A DNA stretch of 64,000 bases from Lichenostomus cassidix (lineage: Eukaryota > Chordata > Aves > Passeriformes > Meliphagidae). The notes beneath the pieces are model-generated. The model made no database searches. It was not told the DNA's origin and was given only the letters and a program-made list of their open reading frames with translations. The stretch spans positions 150,945,858 to 151,009,857 of the forward strand of contig CM039182.1 of the NCBI GenBank assembly GCA_008360975.2, read 5' to 3'. This document shows positions 25,467-54,845 of the stretch, in pieces (position 1 is the first letter of the stretch; each line of letters starts with the position of its first letter). Both the position numbers and the translations under genes were made by a program.

Positions 25467-26777
25467 GGGTGTGGTGTGGAGGGTCCCTGGAAGAGAGGGG
25501 AGTGAGGCAGGTCATTGTGGTGGGGTTGCAAGGGGTGGTGATGGGGGAAGGCGAGGGGGTGTGGAGGTTGTTGTGGGTCTGTGGGTAGGCATGAGGGCTG
25601 CTGAGGCTGAGGCTGGGAGTGCAGGAGGAGAGGCGCCAGGGGTGCAGGAGCAGGAGGTTCAGGGTCTTGAGACTCACCTGGTTGTTGTCAGGAGATGGTG
25701 TGAGAAGAAGTGTGTGAGGGAGAGAGGCGCTGGACTGGCTTTTATGCTGGTCCTGCAGGGGTGGGACAGCCTTGTCCCATGGCCTTGGGGCAATTTGGAG
25801 GCAACAGATCCCTTCTGGCCCAGCCTGGTGAATCATGAGCTGTGGAATGTTTGACTTCATGCAATTCTGCCATGTCATGTCCTGCCCTTCAATCCATGTC
25901 CATCTGACTTTGGCAGCAATTTTGAAGTGAGAGCTGGTCTTTGGAAGGATTTGATTGTTTCAATGCGTGTCATGGAGAGCTGAATAAACACCCAAAGCCC
26001 TAGAGAGGTGCAATGTCATCCATCAACTTATTTTGAGGCGCTTGTGTGCAGTGGTTTGTGGAGGTCTTCTGAAGAGTGGGCACCTCTTCTGTACCACTGG
26101 ATGTCCATCAGCCATTTTGGTGCTCCCAGGAATGCTGAGGGACATGCTGATATTGTTGGGAGATCAGTCCACAATACCTTGGAAATGTAATAGTGCTTAG
26201 TAGCATTCCTATAGATGAAAAATGGCTCATGGCATTTTGTCTTGAATGGGATCAGAAGAGAGGATCTGGAAATGTAGAGACTGGACTGGCTGAACTTGTT
26301 CTGGCATCATGGTCCATCTGGATTATTTTGCATATTTACACGACATCATACTCTGTCATTTGAAGCGTATTCCTTGACCTCATTAAGAAAATCATTAAAC
26401 TAAGAACCAACCTGGTTTGATCTCTTTTTTCCCTGCCTAGCCTGTGATGTCAATTCATTTATTCCTCATTCAAGCTGTAAAGTTTCATGTCTTATATCCT
26501 TCTAGTCTTAATAATCTGTTCCTGTTAGCAAAATATAATTAATACTAATGGATGGTCAACATAGTTTTCTTCCCTTCTCTGTCGTGGTGCGAGCGTTTCT
26601 TTGATGAATTGTGTAACTCCATGTCTTTCTTTTGAGGCTATGTCCTTCTGTCCTTGGCAGCAGATTTCGAGTGTATTAGAGGCTAAAGGCAGATGTTGAT
26701 GGTGTGTGTCATGGTGGGATGAAGATGTGGCCAAAGCTTTAGGGAGATAGGTTGCCTTCAGTGAGGTCACCCCAAGG

Positions 26778-27277
26778 NNNNNNNNNNNNNNNNNNNNNNN
26801 NNNNNNNNNNNNNNNNNNNNNNNNNNNNNNNNNNNNNNNNNNNNNNNNNNNNNNNNNNNNNNNNNNNNNNNNNNNNNNNNNNNNNNNNNNNNNNNNNNNN
26901 NNNNNNNNNNNNNNNNNNNNNNNNNNNNNNNNNNNNNNNNNNNNNNNNNNNNNNNNNNNNNNNNNNNNNNNNNNNNNNNNNNNNNNNNNNNNNNNNNNNN
27001 NNNNNNNNNNNNNNNNNNNNNNNNNNNNNNNNNNNNNNNNNNNNNNNNNNNNNNNNNNNNNNNNNNNNNNNNNNNNNNNNNNNNNNNNNNNNNNNNNNNN
27101 NNNNNNNNNNNNNNNNNNNNNNNNNNNNNNNNNNNNNNNNNNNNNNNNNNNNNNNNNNNNNNNNNNNNNNNNNNNNNNNNNNNNNNNNNNNNNNNNNNNN
27201 NNNNNNNNNNNNNNNNNNNNNNNNNNNNNNNNNNNNNNNNNNNNNNNNNNNNNNNNNNNNNNNNNNNNNNNNNNNNN
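26778..27277. other. Assembly gap, 500 N
   Basis: Exactly 500 unknown bases, so a placeholder length rather than a measured one. It removes the rest of a provirus whose leader, LTR and gag start lie to the right. Open frames that appear to cross it are artefacts. Confidence 0.99.
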
Positions 27278-27959
27278 TCGGCGGGAAAGCCGAAGCAGCA
27301 GCGGGAACGGGAGGATTATAGGGAGAAGGGATGGGGGATGGGAAAGCCACGCGGCAGGCGCCATCCTGGTGCCAGCCGCCGCTCCTTTGTGGCTCTCCGG
27401 GGAGACAAAAGGAAACACGGCGGGGATTGCGGGGGACTACCAGGGACGAATCAACCCGGGAAGAGGGGTTAGGAGAGACAGAACCGGGGGTGCCCGAGAG
27501 GGTCGCGCGTTCTCCCTCCCAGGCAGGGGACGAAGTGACCACGGGGGCGCCGGAGACTAGATGAGAACTCCGCGTCCGCGGACGTTCTGAGCCGCCGCGG
27601 TCGCCTCGAGAAGGACAGGGGCTGGGGTTAGTTGAGGAACGGGCAGACGGGGAAGGGTTAGCAGGGACTCCCGCGCTCCGAAGGGAGGGACGGAAAGCGT
27701 GGAAAATCTGTGTTAAAATCCCGAAAAACTGGTCCACTCGCTTGTCCCCACGGGACAGAAGCTGGTTCATGCGCGAGCGGACCCCACGCCAAAAATCGAT
27801 GGAGTTAGCATCTTGGGGAGAAACATCGGGAAATTCGGCAAAAATAAATTTAACAAAGCGTTTTAGGAGCGGGGAGGGAAAAGAAAATTTCGCTACTCGG
27901 AGGGAGGTTTTAACGGAAACATAAAATTCTCGTTGCTTTTTGGTTAGGTTAACTCCCAT
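27278..27959 (-). CDS. Gag N-terminal fragment of the GC-rich ERV
   Basis: An open frame of 227 codons from ATG 27959 runs without a stop to the gap edge. It starts Met-Gly-Val, so a Gly2 myristoylation site is present, as in many retroviral matrix proteins. The first 90 or so residues are basic and helical in character with a central FWRGVRSRMNQLL-like stretch. The rest is Pro/Ser/Arg-rich, as in the spacer between matrix and capsid. This fits a class II-type matrix, but no catalytic motif is available to place it. The longer frame reported upstream begins at a GTG and is not the start. Confidence 0.6.
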
Positions 27960-28231
27960 CTTTTCCACCCGAGATAGAGGTTAGCCGAACCAAACTCTCA
28001 CCCGACCGATCCGAACGAAAAATTAAATGAAAAGAGGGTAAGCTAGGGGACCCCTTCCCCTACCAACTCACCCGAACACAAAGCGGCGCGGTCGGTTCAC
28101 GGGGCTCACGGGGCTGGCAGTGCCGGCGAGGAGCACCTCTCGATGTAGTCCAGGGAGGGTGCTGCAACTCGCCGGGTGGCGGAACAACAGATCTCCACTC
28201 TTCCCTTCCAAGGAGCGAAGGCAGGTTCGGA

Positions 28232-40546: not shown

Positions 40547-42672
40547 CTTGTTCTGGAGGGCGGGACAGCCTACTTGCATGGCCTTGGGGCATTTCGGAGG
40601 CAGCAGGTCTTGCTTTTCTGCGCCCAGTGCATCATAGAACTCTCTAATTCCATGTCCTGTCCTTGAGGCCATGTCCCTCTGAACTTCCAGTACACCTTAA
40701 TTGCTATAATGTTTGACCATTATCTTGTTGCTGATTGTGCTTTTCAGGACACGTAGAAGATGCAATAACAGCTTGGGACATCTGGGCAATCATCACTGAG
40801 GTTATGCCATTAGATATTGACAACATATCCCATTTGCATTCTTGCCTCTTCCTGAAAGAACTCCCAGCTCTCTCAGCTTCACCTCATATTAAGGATCCTC
40901 CATACCCCATCACTGTCATGGACTCCCTGCACTGCTCTTGCTCAACAAAGTCCATGTCCTTGTTGCCCTGTGCAGCCCCACCAGTGGTGGGGAACAGGAT
41001 GTTCAGCTCCCTCAACCTGCTTGTATTTCTTCTCCTAAACCTCTCCTAGTAACTGCTGATGGTTTTTATCACAAAGGATACATGGCCAGCTCACGATCTC
41101 TGTATGCTTGACCAGGACCACAAGGTCCTTCTGTACTTTAATGCTTTGGTTGCCATGTGCAGGACAAACGGTGCCATGTGCCTGGATTTCTGTCAGGGCT
41201 TTAACACAGTCCCACAGGACATCCTTCTCCCTGAATTGCACATACATGGATTTGAAGAGTTGACTAATGAATGGATGAGGAATTGTTCTGTCTTGCTGCC
41301 CTTATCCTTCAGCAGTTTCTTTGCCCTGTGTCAGTCACAGCCCAGCACTGGGACCCCACAGTGTGACTGTGGTGGGTCCAGATGAGACAGACAATACAGG
41401 CAAACCAACACAAGACTTAGGAGAGCATGGGAGGCCTCCCTAAACCAATGGATTGCTTTCCCATCTCCAATGGGAAAGGTCTGCTATATAAACACACCTG
41501 GAGAGATGGCAATATGGTGGGAAGGGAGGGAATGTGATGGAAGGAGCAGTCCCTCCCGAGCTGAGCTCCTGCAAAGCCAGAGCAACCTGACAGAGCTGGA
41601 ATAATTTGGGGCACATCTTCACAATGCACCCAGAAATCACAGCACCACTCCAAACCAAGAGTGACCTGGGGTGACCTCACTGATGACACCCAACCTCTCC
41701 AAAGCTTTGGTCGTGTCTTCTGCATGCCCTGACAAGGCCATTAACACCAGCCTTTCGTCTCTAATACTTGAATTTAAATATTGCCATCAAAGTCAGATGG
41801 ACAAGGCCTCAAGGAAAAAATGTGGAATCACAGAATTCCACAATGGATCACCAGCACCATGACATAGGAGGGAAGAGGAGCTTACTGACCATGCATTACT
41901 ACCAATTATTAGCTTCTGCGACCAGGAACAAAATATTAAGACTGAGAGGTTGCAAAATAGGAAACCCTGTGGTTTGAATGTGGTACAAGAGAATTCGCGT
42001 CAAAGACCAGCCTCGGCAAACACGAGTATGTTCTTCATTGGATTTATTAATGAAGTCAAGGAATAACCTTTAAATGACAGTGTATGATGTTGTGTAAATT
42101 TGAGAAATCCTAATGAACAATAACACTGGAAGAAGTTCAGTCTGAACAGCCTCTCCTTTTCCAGATCCTCTCACTTGGTCCCATTCAAGACAAAAGGCCA
42201 TGAGCTCTCGTTTGTCCATCAGGAAGCACTCCCAGGAATCAGGACATTGCCAAGAGATTGCTGATTGGCATCAGGAACTCCCTTGACACTCCTGGGTGCA
42301 ACACAATGACTGATTGACAACCTGTGGCACGGAACAGAGTCCCAGTCCTCACATGGAACCAAAAAACTAAAGCACACAAGTGACATGAAATGACAAAACT
42401 GATGACATTGTACCTCTCCTGGACTCTGATTGTTTATTCAGCCCTCCCAGACACACATCAAACAATCAAATTCCCCTAAATACCTACTCCTAATTAAAAG
42501 TTGCTGTCAAGGTCAAAGGGATATGGAATCAAAGGAAGGATATGGAATTGCAGAATTGAATGAATGAAAACACTCCCCACATCATGACTCACCAGGCTGG
42601 CCAAGCAAGTGCTGCTGCCTCCTAAATGCCCCAAGGCCATGAAACAAAGCTGTCCTGCCCCTGCAGGACAAG
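40547..42672. promoter_or_regulatory. Head-to-head spacer of genes 12 and 13 (flipped orientation)
   Basis: P2 beside gene 12 and P1 beside gene 13 (42425-42520), with the TTTCCC-N9-GGGAAA element at 41457-41477 in reverse. By eye the block 40640-42600 is the reverse complement of 55960-57960, including the CR1 piece, while the 3' flanks of the genes on either side are not inverted. Confidence 0.6.
41040..41390 (+). repeat. CR1-like fragment, sense
   Basis: The frame 41059-41385 carries CLDFCQGFNTVPQDILLPE, a decayed CR1 reverse-transcriptase motif. The matching antisense copy is at 57200-57560, in the inverted spacer. Confidence 0.6.
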
Positions 42673-42963: not shown

Positions 42964-43326
42964 ATGGCCTGCTACGACCTCTGCCGCCCCTGTGGACCCA
43001 CCCCGCTGGCCAACAGCTGCAACGAGCCCTGTGCCCTGCAATGCCAGGATTCCCGTGTTGTCATCGATCCTTCCCCAGTGCTGGTGACCTTTCCTGGACC
43101 CATCATGACCTCCTTCCCCCAGAACACTGCTGTTGGATCCACCTCTGGGGCTGCCGTGGGCACTGAACTCAGTGTGCAGGGACAGCCCATCTCTGGTGGA
43201 TTTGGTGGCTTTGGTGGCTTTGGCTACAGTGGATTTGGCTACAGCAGCTTTGGCCATGGCCGTGGATTTGGCTATGGGCTGGGAGGCCTGGGCTACTATG
43301 GCAGAAGGGGTGGCTACAACTGCTAA
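42964..43326 (+). CDS. Corneous beta-protein, gene 13
   Basis: 120 residues. The core has Asp35 and VTFPGP. The tail is the most divergent of the set: [43 protein letters not shown]. Ser and His replace Gly/Tyr, and the GLGCYG cysteine is a Tyr, but a terminal Cys is present. TATA is at 42673-42680, the intron is 42754-42943, and AATAAA is at 43473-43478. It has a P1-type block. Its convergent partner is gene 14, now 12 kb away because of the inserted provirus. Confidence 0.93.
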
Positions 43327-43478: not shown

Positions 43479-44656
43479 CATTTCCTTCACCAAAACTTAC
43501 ACACCTCCTTATTTTTTTGTTTTCCAATGATCTCTCATCCTCACCCAGCACATTCCACAGCTCAACAGGCCATTTGGGTACATGGAAGAGGATAACAACA
43601 CTTTTCCTCACATATATGTCCAATCAACTAATAAGGAGTCTGGCACACAAAGCTGGGGAGGGGACACCTTGCAGAATATGTCACACACCTGTGAATTGCT
43701 ACACCAACAGCTTGGACACAACAATTCTTTCTTGGGTACAAAACTGGAAAGTCACTTCATGGCAGCCCACATGGAAAAAAAATCTCTTCCCTGCAGGACT
43801 CTTGAACCCTCTCAGCAAAAAAGTGGATGAGCAAAATCATCCACTCAGGCAAGAGCTCTGGAGTGGAAGTGCTTCATCTTCCATGCTCAGACAAGACCAA
43901 CGGGTGCAGGATTTCCGGGACCATGGTCAGCTCAGTTTTCAATCTCCCAGCACAGAGTCCACCAGCTTTTCCACTCTGCGACCATTCTCACACTGAAAAA
44001 TCCTCCCTTTCTTTGCACATGGAATTCCATCTGTTTCCTCTAGTAACCTTCCTCCTTTAACTTTCATGTGCACTGCTGAGAACAGCCGACCTTCCTTGAC
44101 TTCATTCCCTGTCACCTGCGAATTGAGCACACTCACAACACAGCCCAGTCTGTCCTCGTCTTCTGACAGTCCCACCTGTCTCAACCTCTCTCCTAGGAAA
44201 GATTCTTCAGTCTTTTCAGTGTCATGCTTGCCCTGTGCTGGTCTTGTTTCACTAAGCCCTTGTGCTTCTTCCCTCGGCAGCCCAGACCTGCCAAAACCTC
44301 CCCACATGGGACCCCACCAGTCCTTGAAAGCCACCTCTCCTGATTTCATGACAAGAATTGTCTGAAATCTATCTTGGACACTGATGATGCTTTTTCTAGG
44401 AAGGAAAAGATTGATACTTTGTTCTCCACCAGCACAACAGGGTCATGCCAACAAAGCCGCTTTCCAGCATCTCAGCTCCCAGCATGACCAGGGGCCCACA
44501 GCCATTGCTGCCCAGATGAAGAACTTCACATTTACCTTTCTTGAATTTCAGGAGATTTCTTTAACCCTCAGTCTCCAGCTCCCTCTGACTGGTGGCACAG
44601 CCATTCAGTGCCTCAGCATTCCATCACCTGCCAACTCTCTGAGGGGGAAACAGTCC
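43479..44656. other. Gene 13 3' flank up to the provirus
   Basis: Module-type convergent spacer, alike by eye to 58860-59500 for its first part and to 16900-17440 for its second. It is cut at 44656 by the provirus. It continues at 53935. No gene was seen. Confidence 0.45.
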
Positions 44657-45143
44657 TGTTGCCCGAACCGAGGAAACACAAAACAACCGAAGTTATTTTA
44701 TGCGGTGCTTTATTGAGGGCCCTGGGGACCTGAGGACTAATGTCCAAAGTCAGAGCCCCAAACCTGCTACAAATCACTGAGTATATATATGTTTTCTTTC
44801 CAAATTGCTTCATCTTAACGAATTTGATTTCTAGACACATCAACCTGATTTATGATTACATTGTGACTTTGTTTTTCGTTAACTGAACATTCTTTATCAT
44901 CATTAATCTACTACACCCTATTAGATAAGTCACACACTCCACTTAGCAGATTACTTAAATAAACAAACTGTTCTATAGCTACATTCCTTAGACAAGTCTT
45001 TCTCCCCTCATCAGTATGCTCTATTGATCCTTTTGATCGCTACTGGCAACTTCGCTACACAACAGTGTTTACACTCAGGCCTACTGATCCCTCCAAGCCT
45101 TAGCATGACTACTACTAAAGTTTTTATTCATAGTTTTGCAACA
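44657..45143 (-). repeat. 3' LTR of the Ig-env ERV
   Basis: 487 bp with perfect 6-bp inverted ends TGTTGC...GCAACA. On the minus strand TATATATA lies near plus 44782-44791 and AATAAA at plus 44709-44714, followed by a short U5. It has two substitutions relative to the 5' copy. Confidence 0.95.
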
Positions 45144-45196: not shown

Positions 45197-46660
45197 TCAA
45201 AGTCTTTCTTCTCTATTTGCTGGAGGAGGTGTGGAAGACGTTGCATTCCTGGTCATTGCATTGATCAGCCTTCGGGTATGTAGGCGCTCCCTTCCAATGG
45301 TTCCTAAAATACATTTATAAACTCCAAAAATAATTAGAATCAAAATCAAAAACATTATCGCATACTGAATCACCGATGATATCCATCCAGACACCTGGAG
45401 TCCTAAAGAGCTAAACACTTCTCCAATCCAATTATGTTCTGCTTCCCTTTCGAGATCTTTTGTTTTGTCTTCTATTTGTTCTAATTGTGAAATGTCCTTT
45501 TCCACATCAATAGTTACATTTGGGATATGGATGCAACAATGATCAATTCTCTGGCTCAAATATCCACACACTCCATGTTCCTTCAGTAAGAGCATGTCAA
45601 GAGCCATTCTATTTTGTAATGTCATTCTTGTGGTAGCCTGTAACTGAATATTGAAATCTTTAAATCCTTTCTTAGTGGCTGCTGCCAATCTTTCAGTCTG
45701 CCCCATTAGTTTGTAGAGCATATCCTTGTTCCGATATGAAGCTACAGGTGCAAACAAGGATTCCAAAGCCCACCCGAATTTAACTCCACTGGTTGGCTCA
45801 TGCCATTCGTTTTCATCATCCAAGTCTCGTTTAGTCCTAGCTGATTGTCGAGTCAAATTAGACTGTTTCCAAAACGGACATAAGGTCGGAATTCCTAAAG
45901 TAATTTGTGTGACAGGCCCATCTATTGGCATATGGGTGGTCCATTTTCCATGCCCCATAACCCAAACTAGGTTTCCTGGACTTCTGATAGTAGTAGATTT
46001 ACAACTGATGTTTCTCTTCCCATTTTTATCTCCTTGAATTTGGTCTGTAATTGTGTGGTTGTATCCTCGACATTCACATCCCCATTTTAGCAAGACTCTT
46101 ACTGGTACGAGCCCTATTTTATCTTGTGGTGTGTCACATGTGATTACTTGGGTACAATTCCAAATGTCTTTTTGGTCCCTCTTCTCCCGTCTGGTAGTCT
46201 GGAGGTTCATTACCTCAGTGTAAGTCTGGTTTTTACTTCCTGTCCATTGTATGCACCAATTAACTTGTCCTAAGTAGCTATATGTTTCTAAAAGGCTTGG
46301 TCCCCAAATTGTTCCCCATTCGTCTTCTAAAGACTGGGTCTGGGTAACATTTTGACAGACTTCTTCCTCTCTAATCTTTTGTTCCTTGAGAGTCACTTTG
46401 TTACACGGTTCTGAAACAGGCCCTGAAACAACACACTTATTACCTCTTGATGTTGTCAGCCATGCATAATATCCTGGCATCTGCCTGCATTGGTGTTCAG
46501 TAACCCTCCGGACCAACATACAACCCTCTTTCCAGTCATAGTACTCATTAGGAACCAATCTACAGCTCCAAGTTACATTTACATATGCCTCAGGCAAATC
46601 AGTGACGGGAACTATTCCCCATGGAATTGGTTCTCCGCTGCTCGAGGCAGAGGTAAACAA
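45197..46660 (-). CDS. Env, C-terminal part: SU remainder and TM
   Basis: An open frame of 487 codons with no ATG at its start (first codon is TTG). It continues the env gene after a frameshift in the 46612-46660 overlap. Residues 1-270 are a Cys- and N-glycosylation-rich surface domain. A furin-type site ARTKR ends at 278. The TM part has a GWALESLFAPVASY region, a heptad-rich stretch, an immunosuppressive-domain-like segment at 348-368, a cysteine loop C365...C375-C376, a second helical region (about 384-410) and a membrane anchor at about 431-449, then a 38-residue tail. This is a gammaretrovirus-type TM except for loop length: nine residues lie between the first Cys and the Cys pair. No SU CXXC motif was seen in this part. 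Confidence 0.85.
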   Translation of the reverse strand: MFTSASSSGEPIPWGIVPVTDLPEAYVNVTWSCRLVPNEYYDWKEGCMLVRRVTEHQCRQMPGYYAWLTTSRGNKCVVSGPVSEPCNKVTLKEQKIREEEVCQNVTQTQSLEDEWGTIWGPSLLETYSYLGQVNWCIQWTGSKNQTYTEVMNLQTTRREKRDQKDIWNCTQVITCDTPQDKIGLVPVRVLLKWGCECRGYNHTITDQIQGDKNGKRNISCKSTTIRSPGNLVWVMGHGKWTTHMPIDGPVTQITLGIPTLCPFWKQSNLTRQSARTKRDLDDENEWHEPTSGVKFGWALESLFAPVASYRNKDMLYKLMGQTERLAAATKKGFKDFNIQLQATTRMTLQNRMALDMLLLKEHGVCGYLSQRIDHCCIHIPNVTIDVEKDISQLEQIEDKTKDLEREAEHNWIGEVFSSLGLQVSGWISSVIQYAIMFLILILIIFGVYKCILGTIGRERLHTRRLINAMTRNATSSTPPPANREERL

Positions 46661-47775
46661 GCAGTGATTTTAGAAACATTCTGCATTTCTCCAAAGTCTC
46701 GAATTAAACCTACAATTAAGTTTTCTTGTTCTGGGTTATGGTGAAAAACCCAGGTTTTATTTCCAATTTCAACATCTCTAATTCTTCTTTTATTTATTCG
46801 TGCCCTAGTAAGGGATACCAAGGTCACAGCGTGTGTCCACCATGCATCTTGGGCAATCCAACACCAATATGTCCCTTCATCCTCTGGTTGAACATCCTGT
46901 ATCACTAAAGTTAACATGCCTCCTGATCGCTTCTCTAATTGGTATTTCCCCCCTTCCTGGACATTTCCTTTCTTAAACCACCATCCGAACTCAGAGAAAA
47001 CAATTCCACGCTCTGGTTGGCAAACTAAAACTACAGAAGTACCACGGACCGCCTGGTAAATTCCATGGGTAGGTCTTAACCCATCCATTAGATGACTTTT
47101 TCCTTGTACTTCTCTCTTCCCGTACCCCATCATAGAACCACAACTTATCACACAGAGATATAATCCCTCATTTTTCCCTACATGTGCCTGAGTATCATTT
47201 AACCATCCAATTCCACTATCGCTTCCTGCCTGCAGGTCACTCTTTCCTTCCGGCCTTTCCCACATTATCTGTCTAGCTAATTTCCACCAAGTAACCGTGA
47301 ACATGCTGCTACATTCATGTTGGGCTGTGAATGAGCAATTTATTTTTGAGGGTGGACCATCCCACATGTCAACTGATGCTTGGTAAGGTGAGACTTTTAT
47401 TGCCGAGTTGCTTTGCCATGTCATAACCCCTAGTGCGATTCGTTTATAATCAAAACTCCACCTAATTTTTACCAGACATGTATATATCCCAGCACTTTCC
47501 ATGCTAACGTTGGTAAGCTGTAATGTGGTATTGCCTCTTTGTGTGTCCTTATCCCAAAATGTACTATTGATAACATTAGTGAGTGTTTGCTCTTTTCTCC
47601 AATATGTACTTATCTCATCGACTCCAGCTCCCTGGTCATCAGTGATTTCACAAGTCAAGTTTACAGTCATTCCTTCCATTGCTCCGATTACAGGATCTGA
47701 AACAGTGACAAGTACATGTTCATCAACGGGTAATATTTTTAGCATAACCAGAAATACAGCAATTACAATTTTCAT
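46612..47775 (-). CDS. Env, N-terminal part: signal peptide plus three Ig-like domains
   Basis: 387 codons from ATG 47775, which overlaps the integrase stop by ATGA. Residues 1-16 are a hydrophobic signal peptide. Three tandem immunoglobulin-like domains follow, each with the Cys...Trp...(D/E)xGxYxC pattern: C42-W59-C100 (ESAGIYTC), C147-W163-C208 (KNEGLYLC) and C252-W265-C305 (EDEGTYWC). Many N-glycosylation sites are present. A basic RINKRR motif at 326-331 could be a protease site between the Ig block and the rest of SU, which begins about residue 335 and is cut by a frameshift at about 372-387. The third domain resembles CD300/pIgR-type V domains in its YWCW ending, which is inference. 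An Ig-built retroviral SU is unusual. An upstream GTG start (47823) is not needed. Confidence 0.85.
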   Translation of the reverse strand: MKIVIAVFLVMLKILPVDEHVLVTVSDPVIGAMEGMTVNLTCEITDDQGAGVDEISTYWRKEQTLTNVINSTFWDKDTQRGNTTLQLTNVSMESAGIYTCLVKIRWSFDYKRIALGVMTWQSNSAIKVSPYQASVDMWDGPPSKINCSFTAQHECSSMFTVTWWKLARQIMWERPEGKSDLQAGSDSGIGWLNDTQAHVGKNEGLYLCVISCGSMMGYGKREVQGKSHLMDGLRPTHGIYQAVRGTSVVLVCQPERGIVFSEFGWWFKKGNVQEGGKYQLEKRSGGMLTLVIQDVQPEDEGTYWCWIAQDAWWTHAVTLVSLTRARINKRRIRDVEIGNKTWVFHHNPEQENLIVGLIRDFGEMQNVSKITACLPLPRAAENQFHGE

Positions 47776-48655
47776 TTTGCTCGTAAAATCAATCGCGTGG
47801 GGGACACGACTTGGGATTCCCACTGAGTTGGCATCTTCTTGACTCGCGTGTAATGTATCCAGGAGTCAATTCCAGCCACTTTGATTGCTGTGAATGTTGT
47901 TAGTATCACCTGATACGGGCCGTCCCATGATTCTCTCAGTGGGTCTGTGAACCAGTTCTTCACGTATACTTGGTCTCCTGGTTGAACATCATGCACAGGA
48001 TTTTCCAGTGGAAGAGGTCTGTTCCACTGCAGGGTTCCACGCAAGGCACTGAGAACTCTATGCAGAGAAACAACATAATTATATACTGCCTGATCTCCTA
48101 CCACATGCGGGTCTCCTTTTAAAATAGTTGCATGGTAAGGTTTTCCATATAGTATCTCATAGGGGCTCACGCCTAACCTTTCCCTTGGCTTAATTCTAAT
48201 TCGGAGGAGAGCAAGTGGCAAAGCCTGAGGCCATTGTATTTTGGCTTCTTGACAGATTTTCTTAATTTGGCCCTTTAAAGTTTGATTCATTCTTTCTACT
48301 TGCCCACTAGATTGCGGTCTCCAAGGAGTATGGAGATTCCAAGCAATATCTAACATCGGTGCTACATCCTGCACAATATTAGCAATGAAGTGAGGACCCC
48401 TATCTGATGACAACCCCAAAGGTACTCCAAATCTGGGTATTATCTCTTTCAAGAGAGTTTTCACTACTTCTTTTGCCTGATTAGTCCTACATGGAAAGGC
48501 CTCTGGCCACCCTGAAAAGGTACACACATACACCAGGATATATTTATACCCTTGTGCTTTGGGTAATTCTGAAAAATCCACCTGCCAATAATCTCCCGGT
48601 TCTGGTCCTACTTGTAATTTTCCATCTGAATCTGTTTCCTGACAATAGGATTATT
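47772..48655 (-). CDS. Pol, integrase core and C-terminal part
   Basis: Open frame from about 48655 to the TGA at 47772-47774, without its own ATG. It encodes the retroviral integrase catalytic core: Asp in VDFSELP, Asp in LSSDRGPHF, and Glu in GQVERMNQTLK, i.e. the D,D(35)E triad. The C-terminal domain has a GDQVYVKNW...ESWDGPYQVILTTFTAIKVAG...WIHYTRVKK pattern as in gammaretroviruses. It is separated from the rest of pol by a frameshift. The env ATG overlaps its stop codon. Confidence 0.9.
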
Positions 48656-51028
48656 CTTTAAACAGACTGGGCACATTGCATTCACCCGTTTTGCCAACGT
48701 TAACATCTGATTGGAAATTATTTCATTCTTCAAAAATTTTACCAATGCTTCTGCTCCCCAATGACTTTTGTTATGTTCAGCTATGAGGATGGCTTTCATT
48801 ATCTGTATGGGAACAACTACTTGTCCTGTATTGGTTGTGTACCATCCTGTTGCTCCTTTCCGAGCTTTCAATAACATGGCTAGTTTCTCATCATCCTGTG
48901 AATACTTTGGAGCTTGTTGCATATAAGGTGTAACAGGGTTTACCTTAGTTGGTATAAGAGCCATCTGAGTCCATACTTGATGAGCTGCCTGCTTTGCAGT
49001 TACATCTGCTAAATGATTACCTTGGTAGATTTTTCCTTCTTCATTCCGATGTCCCCGGACATGCATAACGGCCACTCGCTCTGGTCGGTGTACAGCATCC
49101 AACAATGCTAACACTTCTGTGCGATGTTTTATTACAGCCCCTTGGGAATTAAGAAGTCCTCTTTCTTTCCATAGTGCTCCGTGAACATGCACCACACCAA
49201 AGGCATACTTGGAATCAGTCCAAATATTTACCGTTTTCCCAGTGCTCAATATCAAGGCTCGAGTAAGTCCAATGATCTCAGCCTTTTGGGCTGACGTACC
49301 TGGTGGCAAGGCTTGTGCCTCCACAACTCGAGTAACTGTAACCACTGAATATCCCGCATACCTGGTACCGTTTTCCATAAAACTGGAACCATCGGTAAAT
49401 AATTCCCAGTCTGGAGCATCCAGGGGTTCATTCTTCAAATCCGGTCGGCTCGAATAAACTTGTTCAATCACTTCCACACAGTCATGGGAGAGCTCATGTT
49501 CTTCCATCTCACTGTGGAGGAACTCTGCTGGATTAATATGATTAGTCGTTTGGAGTTCTATGTCATCTTGTTCTCTTAGAATAGCTTGATACTGCAGCAT
49601 TCTACTGGAAGATAGCCAATGACCCCCCTTTTGCTCCAAGACAGCTAGTACCATGTGGGGAACATACACCGTCATTCTTTTTCCCATGGTAAGTTTCCTG
49701 GCTTCCTGAATGAGAAGTACCGTAGCCGCAACGGCCCGCAAGCATGACGGCCAACCGGTACTTACAGTGTCCAGTTGTTTGGAGAAATATCCCACAGGCC
49801 TCTTCCAGGATCCCAACTTCTGGGTTAGAACTCCCAATGCTAGTTTCTGCCTTTCATTCACATATAATTGAAAGTCTTTGTTTAAATCTGGCAACCCCAA
49901 GGCCGGGGCTTCTTTTAATGCTTGTTTCAAATCCTGGAACGCCTTCTCCCTGTTTGGATTCCATTTCAATTGGGATTCTTTTAGAGCCTCATATAGGGGT
50001 TTTGCTATCAGGCCAAAATTCGGAATCCATAGCCTGCACCATCCAACCATTCCCAGAAAGGATCTTAACTCCTGGTGATTTCTAGGGAGTGGAATGGAGC
50101 ATATAGCTTCAATTCTGTTAACCCCCAAACGTCTGAGGCCTTGTGTTAGCTCACATCCTAGGTACAGGACACTTTCTCTGACCAGTTGTACTTTTTCCTT
50201 GGATACCTTGTATCCTGCTTGCCCCAACATATTTAATAATGCAACAGTTAATCGGAGGCATACCTTCTTGTCTTCTGTGGCCAAAAGAATATCATCTACA
50301 TACTGCAATACTACATAAGAATATGGAGATTCTCTCACCTGAGTCATTTTCCATTCTTCTAATTCCTTTGCCAATTGATTACCAAAGATGGTAGGGCTGT
50401 TTTTGAATCCTTGAGGCAGTCTGGTCCAGGTGAGCTGTTTCTTCCTTCCTGTCATTGGTTCTTCCCATTCAAAGGCAAAATACTTCATGCTCTCTATTGC
50501 CAGTGGGATGCAGAAGAAGGCATCCTTTAAATCAATCACAGTGAACCATTTAAATCGTTCCGATACAGATGTTAACAATGTGTAAGGGTTGGCAACCACT
50601 GGGTGAATGTCTTTAACTATCTCGTTTATAGCCCTTAAATCTTGAACTAATCTATACTTACCATTTGGTTTCTTCACCGGGAATATAGGAGTATTATACT
50701 CTGATTCACATTCCTTTAATAATCCTTGCACTGTAAACTGTGCTATCAGCGGAGCTACTCCCTGCCGAGCCTCTGCTTTAATGGGATACTGTTTTATCCT
50801 AACCGGTTTAGCTCCTTCTTTTAGCTCAACTACCACCGGCTGGGCAACCTTTGATTTTCCTGGAGTTCCCGCCTCCCAAACCCAGGGTACCACTGCATGT
50901 TCAATCTCTGTTGGGATCGGTGCCGGGTCCATTTCCTTTATTGCAAATATTTTCCCTATTTCTTCATCCGGAATTTCCAATTTAACTCGACCCTGTTCAA
51001 ATATAATTTTAGCATTTAATAGAGACAG
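48608..51028 (-). CDS. Pol: reverse transcriptase, RNase H and integrase zinc domain
   Basis: Open frame of about 806 codons directly following the UAG at 51029-51031 and in the same frame as gag-pro. Counting from 50980: LPQGFKNSP at 188-196 and the YVDD catalytic box at 227-230; RNase H with D530, E568, D589 and D659; integrase zinc-binding H736, H740, C770 and C773. The frame then ends at a TAG (48608) through a frameshift shortly after the zinc domain. LPQGFKNSP, YVDD and the RNase H layout place it with gammaretroviruses. No key residue is missing in RT or RNase H. Confidence 0.92.
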   Translation of the reverse strand: MSLLNAKIIFEQGRVKLEIPDEEIGKIFAIKEMDPAPIPTEIEHAVVPWVWEAGTPGKSKVAQPVVVELKEGAKPVRIKQYPIKAEARQGVAPLIAQFTVQGLLKECESEYNTPIFPVKKPNGKYRLVQDLRAINEIVKDIHPVVANPYTLLTSVSERFKWFTVIDLKDAFFCIPLAIESMKYFAFEWEEPMTGRKKQLTWTRLPQGFKNSPTIFGNQLAKELEEWKMTQVRESPYSYVVLQYVDDILLATEDKKVCLRLTVALLNMLGQAGYKVSKEKVQLVRESVLYLGCELTQGLRRLGVNRIEAICSIPLPRNHQELRSFLGMVGWCRLWIPNFGLIAKPLYEALKESQLKWNPNREKAFQDLKQALKEAPALGLPDLNKDFQLYVNERQKLALGVLTQKLGSWKRPVGYFSKQLDTVSTGWPSCLRAVAATVLLIQEARKLTMGKRMTVYVPHMVLAVLEQKGGHWLSSSRMLQYQAILREQDDIELQTTNHINPAEFLHSEMEEHELSHDCVEVIEQVYSSRPDLKNEPLDAPDWELFTDGSSFMENGTRYAGYSVVTVTRVVEAQALPPGTSAQKAEIIGLTRALILSTGKTVNIWTDSKYAFGVVHVHGALWKERGLLNSQGAVIKHRTEVLALLDAVHRPERVAVMHVRGHRNEEGKIYQGNHLADVTAKQAAHQVWTQMALIPTKVNPVTPYMQQAPKYSQDDEKLAMLLKARKGATGWYTTNTGQVVVPIQIMKAILIAEHNKSHWGAEALVKFLKNEIISNQMLTLAKRVNAMCPVCLKNNPIVRKQIQMENYK

Positions 51029-52285
51029 CTAATCCCGTCCAAACAGAGGCTGGGGGCAGTTTGGCATATACAAAAACTGATGATCCAGTTCCTTTCCTCC
51101 GAATTTTAAATTAAGGGGTTGTAGAAAAGGCCTTTCCTCCAATTGTCCTGTAGCTCCTATTACCTGTATAGTTGTGTCACTTATGGGTCCCAACCGTTTA
51201 TTTAAAACTGAGTGAGTAGCCCCTGTATCAACCATAAATTCCTGCTCCTGTCCGCCTATTTCTATTATCACCTTCAGATCCCGGTCTAGTCTGCTTTGAT
51301 CCCTATAGTTTCCTAACATCATTGCCTGTGCTTGTGTCTGGGCGCCATCTACCGGCGGTACGGGGAAACCTCCCATCAACCCTACATTACTCATCCCTAT
51401 CCCATTTCTTATCGGACACTCATTCTTCCAGTGTCCGAATTGATGACAAAATGCACACTGATTAGGACCCAACTGTTCCTGTCTACCCTGGCTCATCCCT
51501 GCAACTAAAAATCCTCCTCTCCCCCGAGCGAATCCTCCCCTTCCCTGTCCAATTCCCCTTCCTCCCCTTCCCCGGCCCCTTAACCCCCCCCGAACCGCAG
51601 ACTGCTGAATTACTGCAAGAATTCCGGCTTGTTGTCGTTTAGCCGTTTCCTTTTCTCTATTATTATAAACTTTCCAAGCTACCTCTAACAGCTTATCTAA
51701 GCGTCGTGTGTCTTCCCCTTCTAATTTCTGCAACTTTTTCCTAATATCCTCTTGTGACTGTCCCATAAACAACAATGCCAATTGTAACTGACCTTCTTCC
51801 TTCTCCACATCCAAACTAGTGAAACGCCGTGCTGCCTCTTTAAGTCTCTCTAAAAATGCTGAAGGGGATTCATTCTTTTCTTGTTTTATTGAGTATAGCT
51901 TAGACCAATTTAGGGTTTTAGGCATCCCAGTCCGGACGCCTTCAATCAATAATTCCTGATACCTTTTTAACCTCTGTAAACCTTCTAACTCATTTGGATC
52001 CCACTCTGGATCATCCCCAGGGACCAATTGATCTATTGTTTCCCCCATTATCAATCGTAACCGGAGTTGTTCCCTAGCTCGTTCTTTGGTTGCTCGTAAG
52101 ACCATCTCTTTTTCTGTAGAATCCATTAATGTATCTAATAACACTTGTAAATCATTCCAATCCGGATTCTGAGTTTTAATTATCATCTTCACCACCCTGG
52201 CCACCCGTTCGGGGTCCTCCCGATAACTCCCAGCTGATTGTTTCCAAATCACCAAATCCCCTGGAGAAAAGGTACTTTAATAATA
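51029..52285 (-). CDS. Gag capsid-nucleocapsid fused to protease
   Basis: Open frame ending at UAG 51029. From codon 52255: capsid with a gammaretrovirus-like major homology region (about 124-145); an RGG-rich stretch at 222-248 (RGGLRGRGRGGRG...); one zinc knuckle C267-C270-H275-C280; then the aspartic protease with DTGA at 343-346. No stop separates nucleocapsid from protease. The usual gammaretroviral readthrough UAG between gag and pro is absent, and the only UAG comes after protease. The frame lacks a start because of a frameshift from the upstream gag frame. Confidence 0.88.
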
Positions 52286-53028
52286 ACTTTCTCACCACGG
52301 GGGCCCATGGCTTCCCTTAAGGGGGCTATCATTCGGGGTTCCTCTTGATTCCGCCTTCCCTGTCTAGTCCGTGCCGCTATGGGGGTTCTTTGTATGCTTC
52401 GGGAGCTTGGGGAAGGAGTTTGGGGACGGAGGGTGACTGAGGTATGAATTACTCCAAGTCCTTCCGGGGATTGTATATTATTTTCCTCATTAGTCTCATC
52501 CTCATCAGTATCAGTATCATCTATGTCTCCCTCCCCACTTCTGCACGGCGCAGCAGAGGGAACAGGACAAGGGGGGGCAACCATTAAAGATAAATCTTCA
52601 CCTTGACTAGAAAACCGTACTGCACATTTCACACAGGTTTCACGCGCTTTGCACCCAATACATTCATTTTCATCAGTCCCTGCTTGCAACAATAGCATAC
52701 CACACTCCTTTTGCCATTCTGTTTTAGACCCCAAATAACGGAACAAATCCAAATAAGGTACCTCATCCCATTTCTCATTATCCCTTAGATAATACATCAA
52801 TGAATTAATTATGTTCTCATCAACAGTACCATTGACAGGCCATTCCGGTCCCCCCTCAGAAGCATAGAGAGGCCACACATGATTACAAAAATCTATCATT
52901 TTTCCTTTACTTAAGTCCTGGTAAAACCCAGCACTTTTCCATCTTCCCAGCAAACATCCTAATGGGGTGTTCCCCGGTACTTTACCATTAGCTTGCACCA
53001 ATGCTTTAAAGGTTTTAAAAGGCATCAT
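52249..53028 (-). CDS. Gag, matrix and p12-like N-terminal part
   Basis: 259 codons from a double ATG (53028). Residues about 1-110 resemble a gammaretroviral matrix (LGCLLGRWKSAGF...). The next part includes a CIGCKARETCVKC cysteine cluster, a PPCPVPSAAP proline stretch and an acidic run (DDTDTDEDETNEEN). The frame stops at 52249 by a shift in a short T run just before capsid. The second residue is Met, so no Gly2 myristoylation site is present at this start. Confidence 0.8.
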   Translation of the reverse strand: MMPFKTFKALVQANGKVPGNTPLGCLLGRWKSAGFYQDLSKGKMIDFCNHVWPLYASEGGPEWPVNGTVDENIINSLMYYLRDNEKWDEVPYLDLFRYLGSKTEWQKECGMLLLQAGTDENECIGCKARETCVKCAVRFSSQGEDLSLMVAPPCPVPSAAPCRSGEGDIDDTDTDEDETNEENNIQSPEGLGVIHTSVTLRPQTPSPSSRSIQRTPIAARTRQGRRNQEEPRMIAPLREAMGPRGEKVIIKVPFLQGIW

Positions 53029-53447
53029 GGCAAAACAGAAAGTAACATGCAGAGAATAACAGGTAACATGCAGAGAATACAGATTTCAACAGCACCAAGT
53101 ATAGAAAGAGGACAGCAACCAAACCAACCAACTTGCCACTTCTCGTCGCCGCGAGGGGCAAGTGCTGAACCTGCGTAGCTTTCGCTCCGTCTTATGGTCA
53201 GCGCCTAGGCATCCCCAAGACGTCTATAACCCAACCCTGCGAGGTTCGCCGCCTCATCTTATGGGCAGGTACCCAGTATTAAACAAATAAAGCACCTTAC
53301 GGGCTTACCTCCTGCAGTTGTCCGACAGGCGCGGGGGTCGGGCACGAACCGATGACTCCCCGAGAATCACCCGGTGCCGGCGTGGAGTAGATCAGGACGT
53401 GAACCGCCCCAGCCACCTTCGGAGTCCTGCCGCGGTCGCCAGAAAAC
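53029..53447 (-). promoter_or_regulatory. ERV leader with primer site and splice donor
   Basis: The primer-binding site abuts the 5' LTR region at about 53422-53441 (plus strand ends GGTCGCCA). The complement of this region fits the 3' end of a tRNA-Arg with a GACCGCG acceptor stem. A good splice donor GAGGTAAGC lies at plus 53303-53310 and would serve env mRNA. A short tandem repeat (AACATGCAGAGAATA, twice) is at 53045-53082. Confidence 0.6.
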
Positions 53448-53934
53448 TGTTGCCCGAACCGAGGAAACACAAAACAACCGAAGTTATTTTATGCGGTGCT
53501 TTATTGAGGGCCCTGGGGACCTGAGGACTAATGTCCAAAGTCAGAGCCCCAAACCTGCTACAAATCACTGAGTATATATATGTTTTCTTTCCAAATTGCT
53601 TCATCTTAACAAATTTGATTTCTAGACACATCTACCTGATTTATGATTACATTGTGACTTTGTTTTTCGTTAACTGAACATTCTTTATCATCATTAATCT
53701 ACTACACCCTATTAGATAAGTCACACACTCCACTTAGCAGATTACTTAAATAAACAAACTGTTCTATAGCTACATTCCTTAGACAAGTCTTTCTCCCCTC
53801 ATCAGTATGCTCTATTGATCCTTTTGATCGCTACTGGCAACTTCGCTACACAACAGTGTTTACACTCAGGCCTACTGATCCCTCCAAGCCTTAGCATGAC
53901 TACTACTAAAGTTTTTATTCATAGTTTTGCAACA
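53448..53934 (-). repeat. 5' LTR of the Ig-env ERV
   Basis: 487 bp, TGTTGC...GCAACA. TATATATA is at plus 53573-53582 and AATAAA at plus 53500-53505. It is followed on its right by the GTCC duplication and the resumed keratin spacer. Confidence 0.95.
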
Positions 53935-54845
53935 GTCCTACTATGAACATTATTTCTCAGGATGTTGAACAGTGTTGGTCCTGTGGATGCAACTCCTGAC
54001 CTTCTTCCCTTGAGACTTTACTCCCTATTGGCATTGGGCTGATGATCAGAAGCCTCTGACCCCAGCCCCTCAAGCACTTGCAGGCCACTCACTAAAATCT
54101 CAACAAACCCAGACTTGCTTGGATGCTCTTGGAGCAGGAAATGGGAAGGTGTCTAAAAGGCTTCACAAAAAGGTCAAGTTCAACAGCAGCCACAATTCTC
54201 TCCTCATGCCCTGACTGAGTCATTTAGACAGATCAGACACTGAGCTCAGCCAAGCACCATTTCCTCCAGGGAAATCCTCCAAGAGAAGTGGCCTCAGTCC
54301 TGTGCACTTCCCACGATTCAAAACCCCAAAGGCCTTGGCTCACCCTCCCATGCTGCCACTCCCATTTGAACTCTACTTCCTCTCACAGGTGACACCAACA
54401 CCCATGGAATCAACTCAGCTGCAAAAGACCCTTGACACTAAGTCCCAATGGTAAGAAAGGACTCTGAAATACACCACTAAACAATCGTATCTGTAAAACT
54501 TTTTGATGCAGAAAATCTAAATTTGAAATAACATCAAGTCTAACCACTCCTTCAGCACTACCAAGGCCACCACTAACTCATGTCCCCAAGTGCAACATCT
54601 ACAGGCATATTAAATCCCTGCAGGCATGATGACTCCACCACCACCCTGTGCAGTCTGTGCCAGGAATGACAGCCCTGTCCATGAAGGAAACTTCCATGAC
54701 ATCCAACCTAAACATCTCCTGAAGAAACTTGAACTCTAGATTCCTCCTCTCCTATGGTGCAGTGAAATGGAAACAGGTTTCACATCCACTTCATTACCAC
54801 CTCCATGCAGTTAACAGACATTTGAGGTTAGTATGCATGAAAAAC
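53935..54845. other. Resumed convergent spacer, provirus to gene 14
   Basis: Continuation of the module spacer after the provirus, alike by eye to 17400-17700 and 24240-24690. It carries the 24250-24360 version of the sequence at the solo-LTR site. No gene was seen. Confidence 0.45.

What the first reader, a model, noticed from the sequence alone, without database searches (positions are those of the whole stretch)
46612..47775. Retroviral envelope built with three tandem immunoglobulin-like domains
The env gene starts with a signal peptide and three successive Cys-Trp-(D/E)xGxYxC domains (C42-W59-C100, C147-W163-C208, C252-W265-C305), then a basic RINKRR motif, then a more ordinary SU and a gammaretrovirus-type TM in the next frame. 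The env ATG overlaps the integrase stop, so the Ig block is in the normal env position. The simplest reading is capture of host Ig domains, or long divergence of an Ig-fold receptor-binding domain. I know of no well-described retrovirus with this SU layout, but I could not search for it. Functional consequences such as receptor mimicry or decoy are speculation.
Basis: partly seen in the sequence, partly recalled or inferred. Interest (0 to 1): 0.92.

Follow-up and report, generated by a model that had tools for sequence, protein, structure and literature searches.

The report
Retroviral envelope with tandem immunoglobulin domains
A recently inserted retrovirus in what looks like a bird genome has an envelope gene whose front part is built like a host immune or adhesion receptor (immunoglobulin domains in a row), which suggests that the virus took a host surface protein into its entry protein.

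Summary
A minus-strand provirus has 487-bp LTRs with 2 differences and a 4-bp target duplication. The env ATG overlaps the integrase stop. Env opens with a signal peptide and three C-W-C units. Two are Ig domains by profile (Pfam ig: whole ORF 4.4e-18; D1 1.4e-10, D3 2e-8). The middle one has the canonical residues but no significant hit. Of 200,000 residue shuffles none gave three such units. About 320 SU residues, an RTKR site and a gamma-like TM follow, mostly in another frame, so this env is broken; gag and pol are too.

Best reading: a class I retrovirus took up a host Ig-superfamily ectodomain and kept it in front of its SU/TM as an attachment or immune-decoy head. LTRs and target duplication bracket the whole element, so the block most likely arrived with it. 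Donor, other copies and function are untested: the genome and protein databases did not answer. Closest precedent: CrocERV31, where three-Ig nectin3 replaces env (PMC4299795). RINKRR is no R-X-K/R-R site; TM has CX9CC; no CXXC was found.

The parts
53448..53934 (-). 5' LTR of the provirus (487 bp)
   Evidence: alignment; ends; 2 substitutions against the 3' LTR
44657..45143 (-). 3' LTR of the provirus (487 bp)
44653..44656 (.). target-site duplication GTCC, one copy (other copy 53935-53938)
52249..53028 (-). front part of gag (by position; Gag_MA only 0.14)
51029..52276 (-). gag capsid, one CCHC-like knuckle and protease in one frame
   Evidence: Gag_p30 7.5e-37, RVP 1.7e-9; zf-CCHC 0.06, below cut-off
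48608..51028 (-). pol: reverse transcriptase and RNase H
   Evidence: RVT_1 2.2e-30, RNase_H 2e-23
47772..48650 (-). integrase, in another frame than pol
   Evidence: rve 3e-13, MLVIN_C 1.4e-16
46612..47775 (-). env ORF1: signal peptide, Ig block, start of the following SU
47719..47775 (-). probable signal peptide (about residues 1-19)
   Evidence: hydropathy; cleavage point not predicted
47401..47715 (-). Ig domain D1 (C42, W59, C100)
   Evidence: Pfam ig 1.4e-10 for residues 21-130
47092..47400 (-). Ig-like unit D2 (C147, W163, C208; further cysteines 155 and 212)
   Evidence: canonical residues; no significant profile; low-confidence model with Ig-like strands
46801..47100 (-). Ig domain D3 (C252, W265, C305); first 9 bases shared with the D2 piece as searched
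   Evidence: Pfam ig 2e-8, V-set 4e-8
46783..46800 (-). basic motif RINKRR
   Evidence: no R-X-K/R-R in ORF1
45197..46669 (-). env ORF2: rest of SU and TM; overlaps ORF1 by 58 nt in another frame
45827..45838 (-). RTKR, probable SU/TM cleavage site
45533..45568 (-). CX9CC motif of TM, after an ISD-like stretch
45290..45394 (-). membrane span of TM (ORF2 residues 426-460)
   Evidence: hydropathy

Best explanation
This is the env gene of a recently integrated class I (gamma-like) endogenous retrovirus. The ectodomain of a host Ig-superfamily surface protein (two clear Ig domains around a divergent third) was taken in between the signal peptide and the rest of SU, and the SU/TM machinery behind it was kept. 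In the working virus the Ig head would have sat on the outside of the Env spike and bound the partner of the captured host protein, either to attach the virus to cells that carry that partner or to occupy an immune receptor, while TM did the fusion. Shown: two Ig domains by profile, a third by its canonical residues, their place in env, a TM-type partner behind them, young and clean element borders. Inferred: host capture, passage through a spliced RNA (no intron interrupts the block), spike display, any binding. This copy cannot make the whole Env in one frame; its ORF1 would give a secreted protein with no membrane anchor.
For: Cellular Ig profiles hit ORF1 at 4.4e-18 and the retroviral SU profile TLV_coat is not among its 10 families. 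D1 and D3 each hit alone. Three C-W-C units in 0 of 200,000 shuffles. The nearest PDB sequences are host Ig proteins: CD276, PD-L1 and pIgR. D2 is 13% identical to D1 and 20% to D3, against a recent triplication of one domain. ORF2 has no signal peptide and its first Met is residue 51, so it must have been the rear of an ORF1-type protein. 974 nt lie between the Ig block and the end of RTKR, room for about 320 SU residues (positions). LTRs with 2 differences and a 4-bp duplication bracket the element. Precedent: an ERV with captured three-Ig nectin3 (PMC4299795, passages).
Against: No donor found: the PDB matches are weak, partial and spread over many Ig proteins. D2 is not significant by any profile or PDB search. 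Both structure models are of low confidence (35.7; 50.6). Base composition of the block equals that of the virus, so a recent capture is unlikely. Only one copy was seen and it is broken in gag, pol and env, so use by a replicating virus is not shown. Nothing here separates attachment from decoy.
Confidence: 0.55

Rival explanations
1. The block is an old retroviral receptor-binding region and no capture took place: gamma-type RBDs have a V-type Ig-like sandwich, and duplication plus long divergence gave domains that look canonical.
For: The RBD of EnvP(b)1 is a beta sandwich with some similarity to a V-type Ig fold (PMC7683403, passages). The block sits where the RBD belongs, its base composition is that of the rest of the virus, and no close host relative was found.
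Against: The canonical cysteine pair, Trp and xGxYxC are present in each unit and cellular Ig profiles hit at 4.4e-18 while TLV_coat does not hit ORF1. No retroviral Env is among the 60 best PDB rows shown for ORF1 (of 713), D1 (of 297), D3 (of 2517) or D1-D2 (of 73); the rows not shown were not seen. About 320 further SU residues follow the block.
Confidence: 0.2
2. A one-off chimera: a host mRNA joined to a defective provirus during one replication cycle, copied once or a few times with helper proteins, and of no use to a virus.
For: Frame breaks in gag, pol and env; one copy known, none other in the 64-kb window; defective gene capture is known (PMC4299795 and PMC11905727, passages).
Against: The block is in frame at both borders for 387 codons, keeps the ATG/integrase-stop overlap, and has viral composition, which suggests long passage in the virus. 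With only 2 LTR differences the open frame itself says little about selection.
Confidence: 0.15
3. The Ig protein is a separate secreted product (an immune decoy) and not the head of the Env spike, as KIT-ligand is a separate ORF between pol and env in CrocERV29.
For: ORF1 has a signal peptide, its own stop and no membrane anchor; R-X-X-R (RRIR) follows the block; the CrocERV29 precedent (PMC4299795, passages).
Against: ORF2 has no signal peptide and no Met before residue 51, so it could not work as env alone. ORF1 runs on for 62 residues beyond the Ig block and overlaps ORF2 by 58 nt. No R-X-K/R-R lies behind the block.
Confidence: 0.1

Closest known systems
CrocERV31 with captured nectin3 in Alligator (PMC4299795, passages seen)
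   Same: An ERV with a three-Ig ectodomain of host origin in the env region.
   Different: There nectin3 is recognisable (about 76% identical to the host protein) and replaces env. Here SU/TM is kept behind the block and no donor is recognised.
CrocERV29 with KIT-ligand ORF between pol and env (PMC4299795, passages seen)
   Same: A host-type surface or cytokine gene gained next to env without loss of a viral domain.
   Different: A separate ORF, not fused to env; no Ig domains are mentioned in the passages seen.
Gamma-type Env (PMC9967133, passages seen)
   Same: Signal peptide, SU, R-X-K-R site, TM with an ISD-like stretch and CXnCC, membrane span.
   Different: Tandem canonical Ig domains in front; n = 9 where 6 is typical; no CXXC found in the SU parts read.
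Avian gamma-type Env of alpharetroviruses (PMC3758190, passages seen)
   Same: No CXXC in SU (alpharetroviral trait per PMC9967133); the fusion peptide is not obviously at the TM N-terminus, by eye.
   Different: No cysteine between RTKR and the CX9CC motif, so no cysteine-flanked fusion peptide; CX9CC and not CX6CC; pol is of class I type.
B7 family (CD276, PD-L1) and pIgR as host Ig proteins
   Same: Best PDB sequence matches of D1 (CD276, PD-L1) and D3 (pIgR).
   Different: Partial and weak matches, and cysteine spacings of 57, 60 and 52 residues, shorter than V-set spacing as I recall it. No orthologue identified.

Membership tests
Immunoglobulin superfamily | match to a curated Ig profile above its cut-off | tested here: met
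   ORF1 and D1 and D3 alone pass ig, Ig_3, V-set and I-set cut-offs; D2 alone does not
Immunoglobulin superfamily | Ig fold in a structure model | tested here: inconclusive
   pLDDT 35.7 and 50.6; the D2 model's first 20 Foldseek rows are 19 from antibody, nanobody, VNAR or TCR entries and 1 IL1RAPL1, none below E 0.001 of 532, and the model was made with D1 and D3 in the alignment
Class I (gamma-like) retrovirus | gamma-type gag capsid, RT and integrase C-terminus | tested here: met
   Gag_p30 7.5e-37, MLVIN_C 1.4e-16; best PDB row for pol 2.1e-196, rows named MMLV or XMRV far above rows named HIV; no tree made
Class I (gamma-like) retrovirus | two LTRs and a 4-bp target duplication (4 bp recalled as usual for gammaretroviruses) | tested here: met
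Gamma-type Env | TM with ISD and CX6CC | tested here: not met
   TLV_coat 2.9e-5 and an ISD-like stretch aligned to ERV S71 TM, but the motif is CX9CC
Gamma-type Env | CXXC in SU (absent in alpharetroviruses) | tested here: not met
   no C..C in ORF2; ORF1 cysteine positions give none
Avian gamma-type Env | internal fusion peptide flanked by two cysteines | tested here: not met
   no Cys between RTKR and the CX9CC motif
Host gene captured by a retrovirus | an identified host donor gene | tested here: inconclusive
   only PDB sequences could be searched; no donor
Host gene captured by a retrovirus | sister elements without the block | not testable with these tools
   The genome search unanswered 10 of 10 times
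B7 family (D1-D2) | IgV-IgC ectodomain orthologous to a B7 gene | tested here: inconclusive
   D1 best rows CD276 5.3e-11 (sum of four stretches of 11.3 bits or less) and PD-L1 2.4e-6 over 40 residues; D2 no match
Nectin3 capture (CrocERV31 type) | similarity to nectin3 | tested here: inconclusive
   no nectin among the 60 rows shown of 713 for ORF1; the other rows were not seen and no sauropsid nectin was compared

The most novel reading that the evidence does not exclude
A replicating lineage of retroviruses carried an Env spike with a complete SU/TM and, in front of it, a captured three-Ig host receptor ectodomain, perhaps of the B7/pIgR-like immune kind. The virus would display, and from copies like this one secrete, a mimic of a host immune or adhesion molecule, for targeting or for immune modulation.
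Probability: 0.4. Interest if true: 0.86.

Novelty: new variant of a known kind. Interest (0 to 1): 0.72.

Why it matters
Retroviruses are known to take cellular genes, usually at the cost of viral genes or as a separate ORF. A multi-Ig ectodomain built into the front of Env with the fusion machinery kept would show a natural route by which a retrovirus gains a new attachment or immune-modulating head. The element is young, so other copies in the same species and its relatives should show when the block was gained and whether selection kept it.

Tried and rejected
Structure: ORF1 alone gave pLDDT 35.7; Foldseek of that model put C2 domains first and had no row below E 0.001 of 1367. This is against the Ig reading at face value, but the model is too poor to count. 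D2 with D1 and D3 as alignment gave 50.6; Foldseek rows are mostly Ig V domains, none significant. Used only as weak support.

Related copies: no pattern match for ORF1 in viral contigs; 1 stretch for ORF2 and 5 for pol matched a pattern but were not confirmed; no match in phages; no second copy of ORF1, ORF2, pol or LTR in the window. None of these collections is a set of bird genomes, so absence says little. RINKRR as a strong furin site: rejected (no R-X-K/R-R in ORF1); a weak R-X-X-R remains. Programmed frameshift between ORF1 and ORF2: no canonical X XXY YYZ heptamer in the overlap, so I take the break as damage or assembly error; not proven. Recent copying of one Ig domain: D2 is 13% identical to D1 and 20% to D3; D1 against D3 gave only an 11-residue match. 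Rejected as recent.

Literature: ten searches listed no paper that I could recognise as describing an Env with tandem Ig domains in front; I judged by titles and abstract starts and looked for passages in nine papers. Only open-access text is held. Basta 2009 (fish retroviruses with cellular genes), seen only as a reference entry, Bolisetty 2012 and Henzy 2014 are not held and could contain something relevant.

Full report
What is there. The window is part of a sauropsid genome, probably a bird: beta-keratin-type genes lie around the element (Pfam Keratin 2.8e-35 for 42964-43326, the one tested), and many frames of the same kind are listed across the window. That they are of avian type is recalled. 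On the minus strand lies a provirus. Its LTRs (44657-45143 and 53448-53934, 487 bp each) differ by two substitutions, and the flanks carry a 4-bp duplication GTCC. With recalled neutral rates of 1.9e-9 to 7e-9 per site and year this gives roughly 0.3 to 1.1 million years.

Genes. In order: a gag front part (52249-53028; by position, Gag_MA only 0.14), gag capsid with protease (51029-52276; Gag_p30 7.5e-37, RVP 1.7e-9), pol (48608-51028; RVT_1 2.2e-30), integrase (47772-48650; MLVIN_C 1.4e-16), env ORF1 (46612-47775) and env ORF2 (45197-46669). A frame change lies within gag, within integrase and within env, and an in-frame stop lies between protease and reverse transcriptase, so this copy looks defective. 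The best PDB sequences for pol score 2.1e-196; rows named MMLV or XMRV lie far above rows named Ty3 or HIV (60 of 213 rows shown).

The Ig block. ORF1 has 387 residues. The only strongly hydrophobic stretch is its first 25 residues. Pfam for the whole ORF: ig 4.4e-18, Ig_3 1.5e-17, V-set 9.2e-15, I-set 2.1e-11. One by one: D1 ig 1.4e-10, D3 ig 2e-8, D2 nothing above a cut-off. A loose C-W-xGxYxC pattern ends at three places; of 200,000 shuffles of the same residues 199,549 had none, 450 one, 1 two. D2 is 13% identical to D1 and 20% to D3. D2 has two further cysteines, 155 and 212, which could tie two loops together; that is a guess.

Nearest host proteins. The only broad host set available was the PDB. 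D1: CD276 5.3e-11, summed over four stretches of 11.3 bits or less, and PD-L1 2.4e-6 over 40 residues (60 of 297 rows shown). D3: pIgR 8.6e-8, also summed over several stretches, CEACAM1 8e-7, then muscle Ig proteins, antibodies and others (60 of 2517). D2: none at E up to 10. Whole ORF1: CD276 1.9e-6, titin 1.6e-5, myomesin, PD-L1, CEACAM1, pIgR (60 of 713). This says cellular-type Ig domains and names no donor. The B7 resemblance of D1 is a lead only.

What follows the block. RINKRR (residues 326-331), then 56 residues to the ORF1 stop, then ORF2 in another frame with a 58-nt overlap. From the end of the block to the end of RTKR are 974 nt. ORF2 has no signal peptide and its first Met is residue 51, so an ORF1-type frame must once have been its front. 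TM: TLV_coat 2.9e-5; PDB rows are GP2 of filovirus type, ERV S71 Env, syncytin-1 and MLV-type Env, best E 5.2e-4, 20 rows in all at E up to 10. The motif is CX9CC; one search aligns it to GP2 with three extra residues. No CXXC was found and no cysteine lies between RTKR and CX9CC. By the descriptions in PMC9967133 and PMC3758190 (passages) this Env is gamma-like but fits neither the gamma-type nor the avian gamma-type in full. Whether CX9CC is a trait of the family or of this copy cannot be told.

Capture or old SU. For capture: cellular profiles hit, TLV_coat does not hit ORF1, and uptake of a three-Ig ectodomain by an ERV is published (PMC4299795, passages). Against a recent capture: no close host relative and viral base composition. 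GC is 0.42 and A 0.32 in the block, against GC 0.40-0.45 and A 0.29-0.34 in the six other pieces of 600 nt or more; the one host gene compared, a keratin at GC 0.60, is no fair sample of host genes. For old SU: a gamma-type RBD has an Ig-like sandwich (PMC7683403, passages). I favour a capture old enough for the sequence to drift and take on viral composition. LTRs and target duplication enclose the whole element, so the block very likely arrived with the integrating genome and was not inserted later.

How it would work. The block is at the N-terminus, where gamma-type Envs carry the receptor-binding part (PMC9967133, passages). The likeliest role is binding of the captured protein's partner. 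I put attachment somewhat ahead of decoy, with no evidence that separates them. About 320 SU residues remain behind the block; as I recall this is near the size of a whole SU in some gamma-type Envs, which would make the block an addition and not a replacement. ORF1 of this copy would be secreted. No expression data were available.

Limits. The two resources that would have decided the matter did not serve: the genome search was busy 10 of 10 times and the large protein collection was off. Lineage, selection and donor remain open. The novelty statement rests on ten open-access searches, judged by listings, and on passages of nine papers.

Noticed in passing
2255-62433, many places, both strands: A cluster of beta-keratin-type frames with glycine/tyrosine-rich tails surrounds the provirus; one was tested and matches Pfam Keratin.
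   Followed up: partly
26739-27980, minus strand: A frame whose first part looks to me like a retroviral gag start, interrupted by a run of 500 N at 26778-27277; no Pfam match at E up to 1.
   Followed up: partly
41059-41385, plus strand: A short frame that resembles a CR1-type LINE reverse transcriptase by eye; RVT_1 only 0.053, below cut-off.
   Followed up: partly
45533-45568: The TM motif is CX9CC where CX6CC is the rule in the descriptions seen.
   Followed up: partly
46178-46189: A second R-X-K-R tetrapeptide (REKR, ORF2 residue 161) inside SU.
   Followed up: no
53424-53441: A primer-binding-site-like stretch that begins with TGG, six bases inside the 5' LTR end (sequence); the primer tRNA was not assigned.
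   Followed up: no
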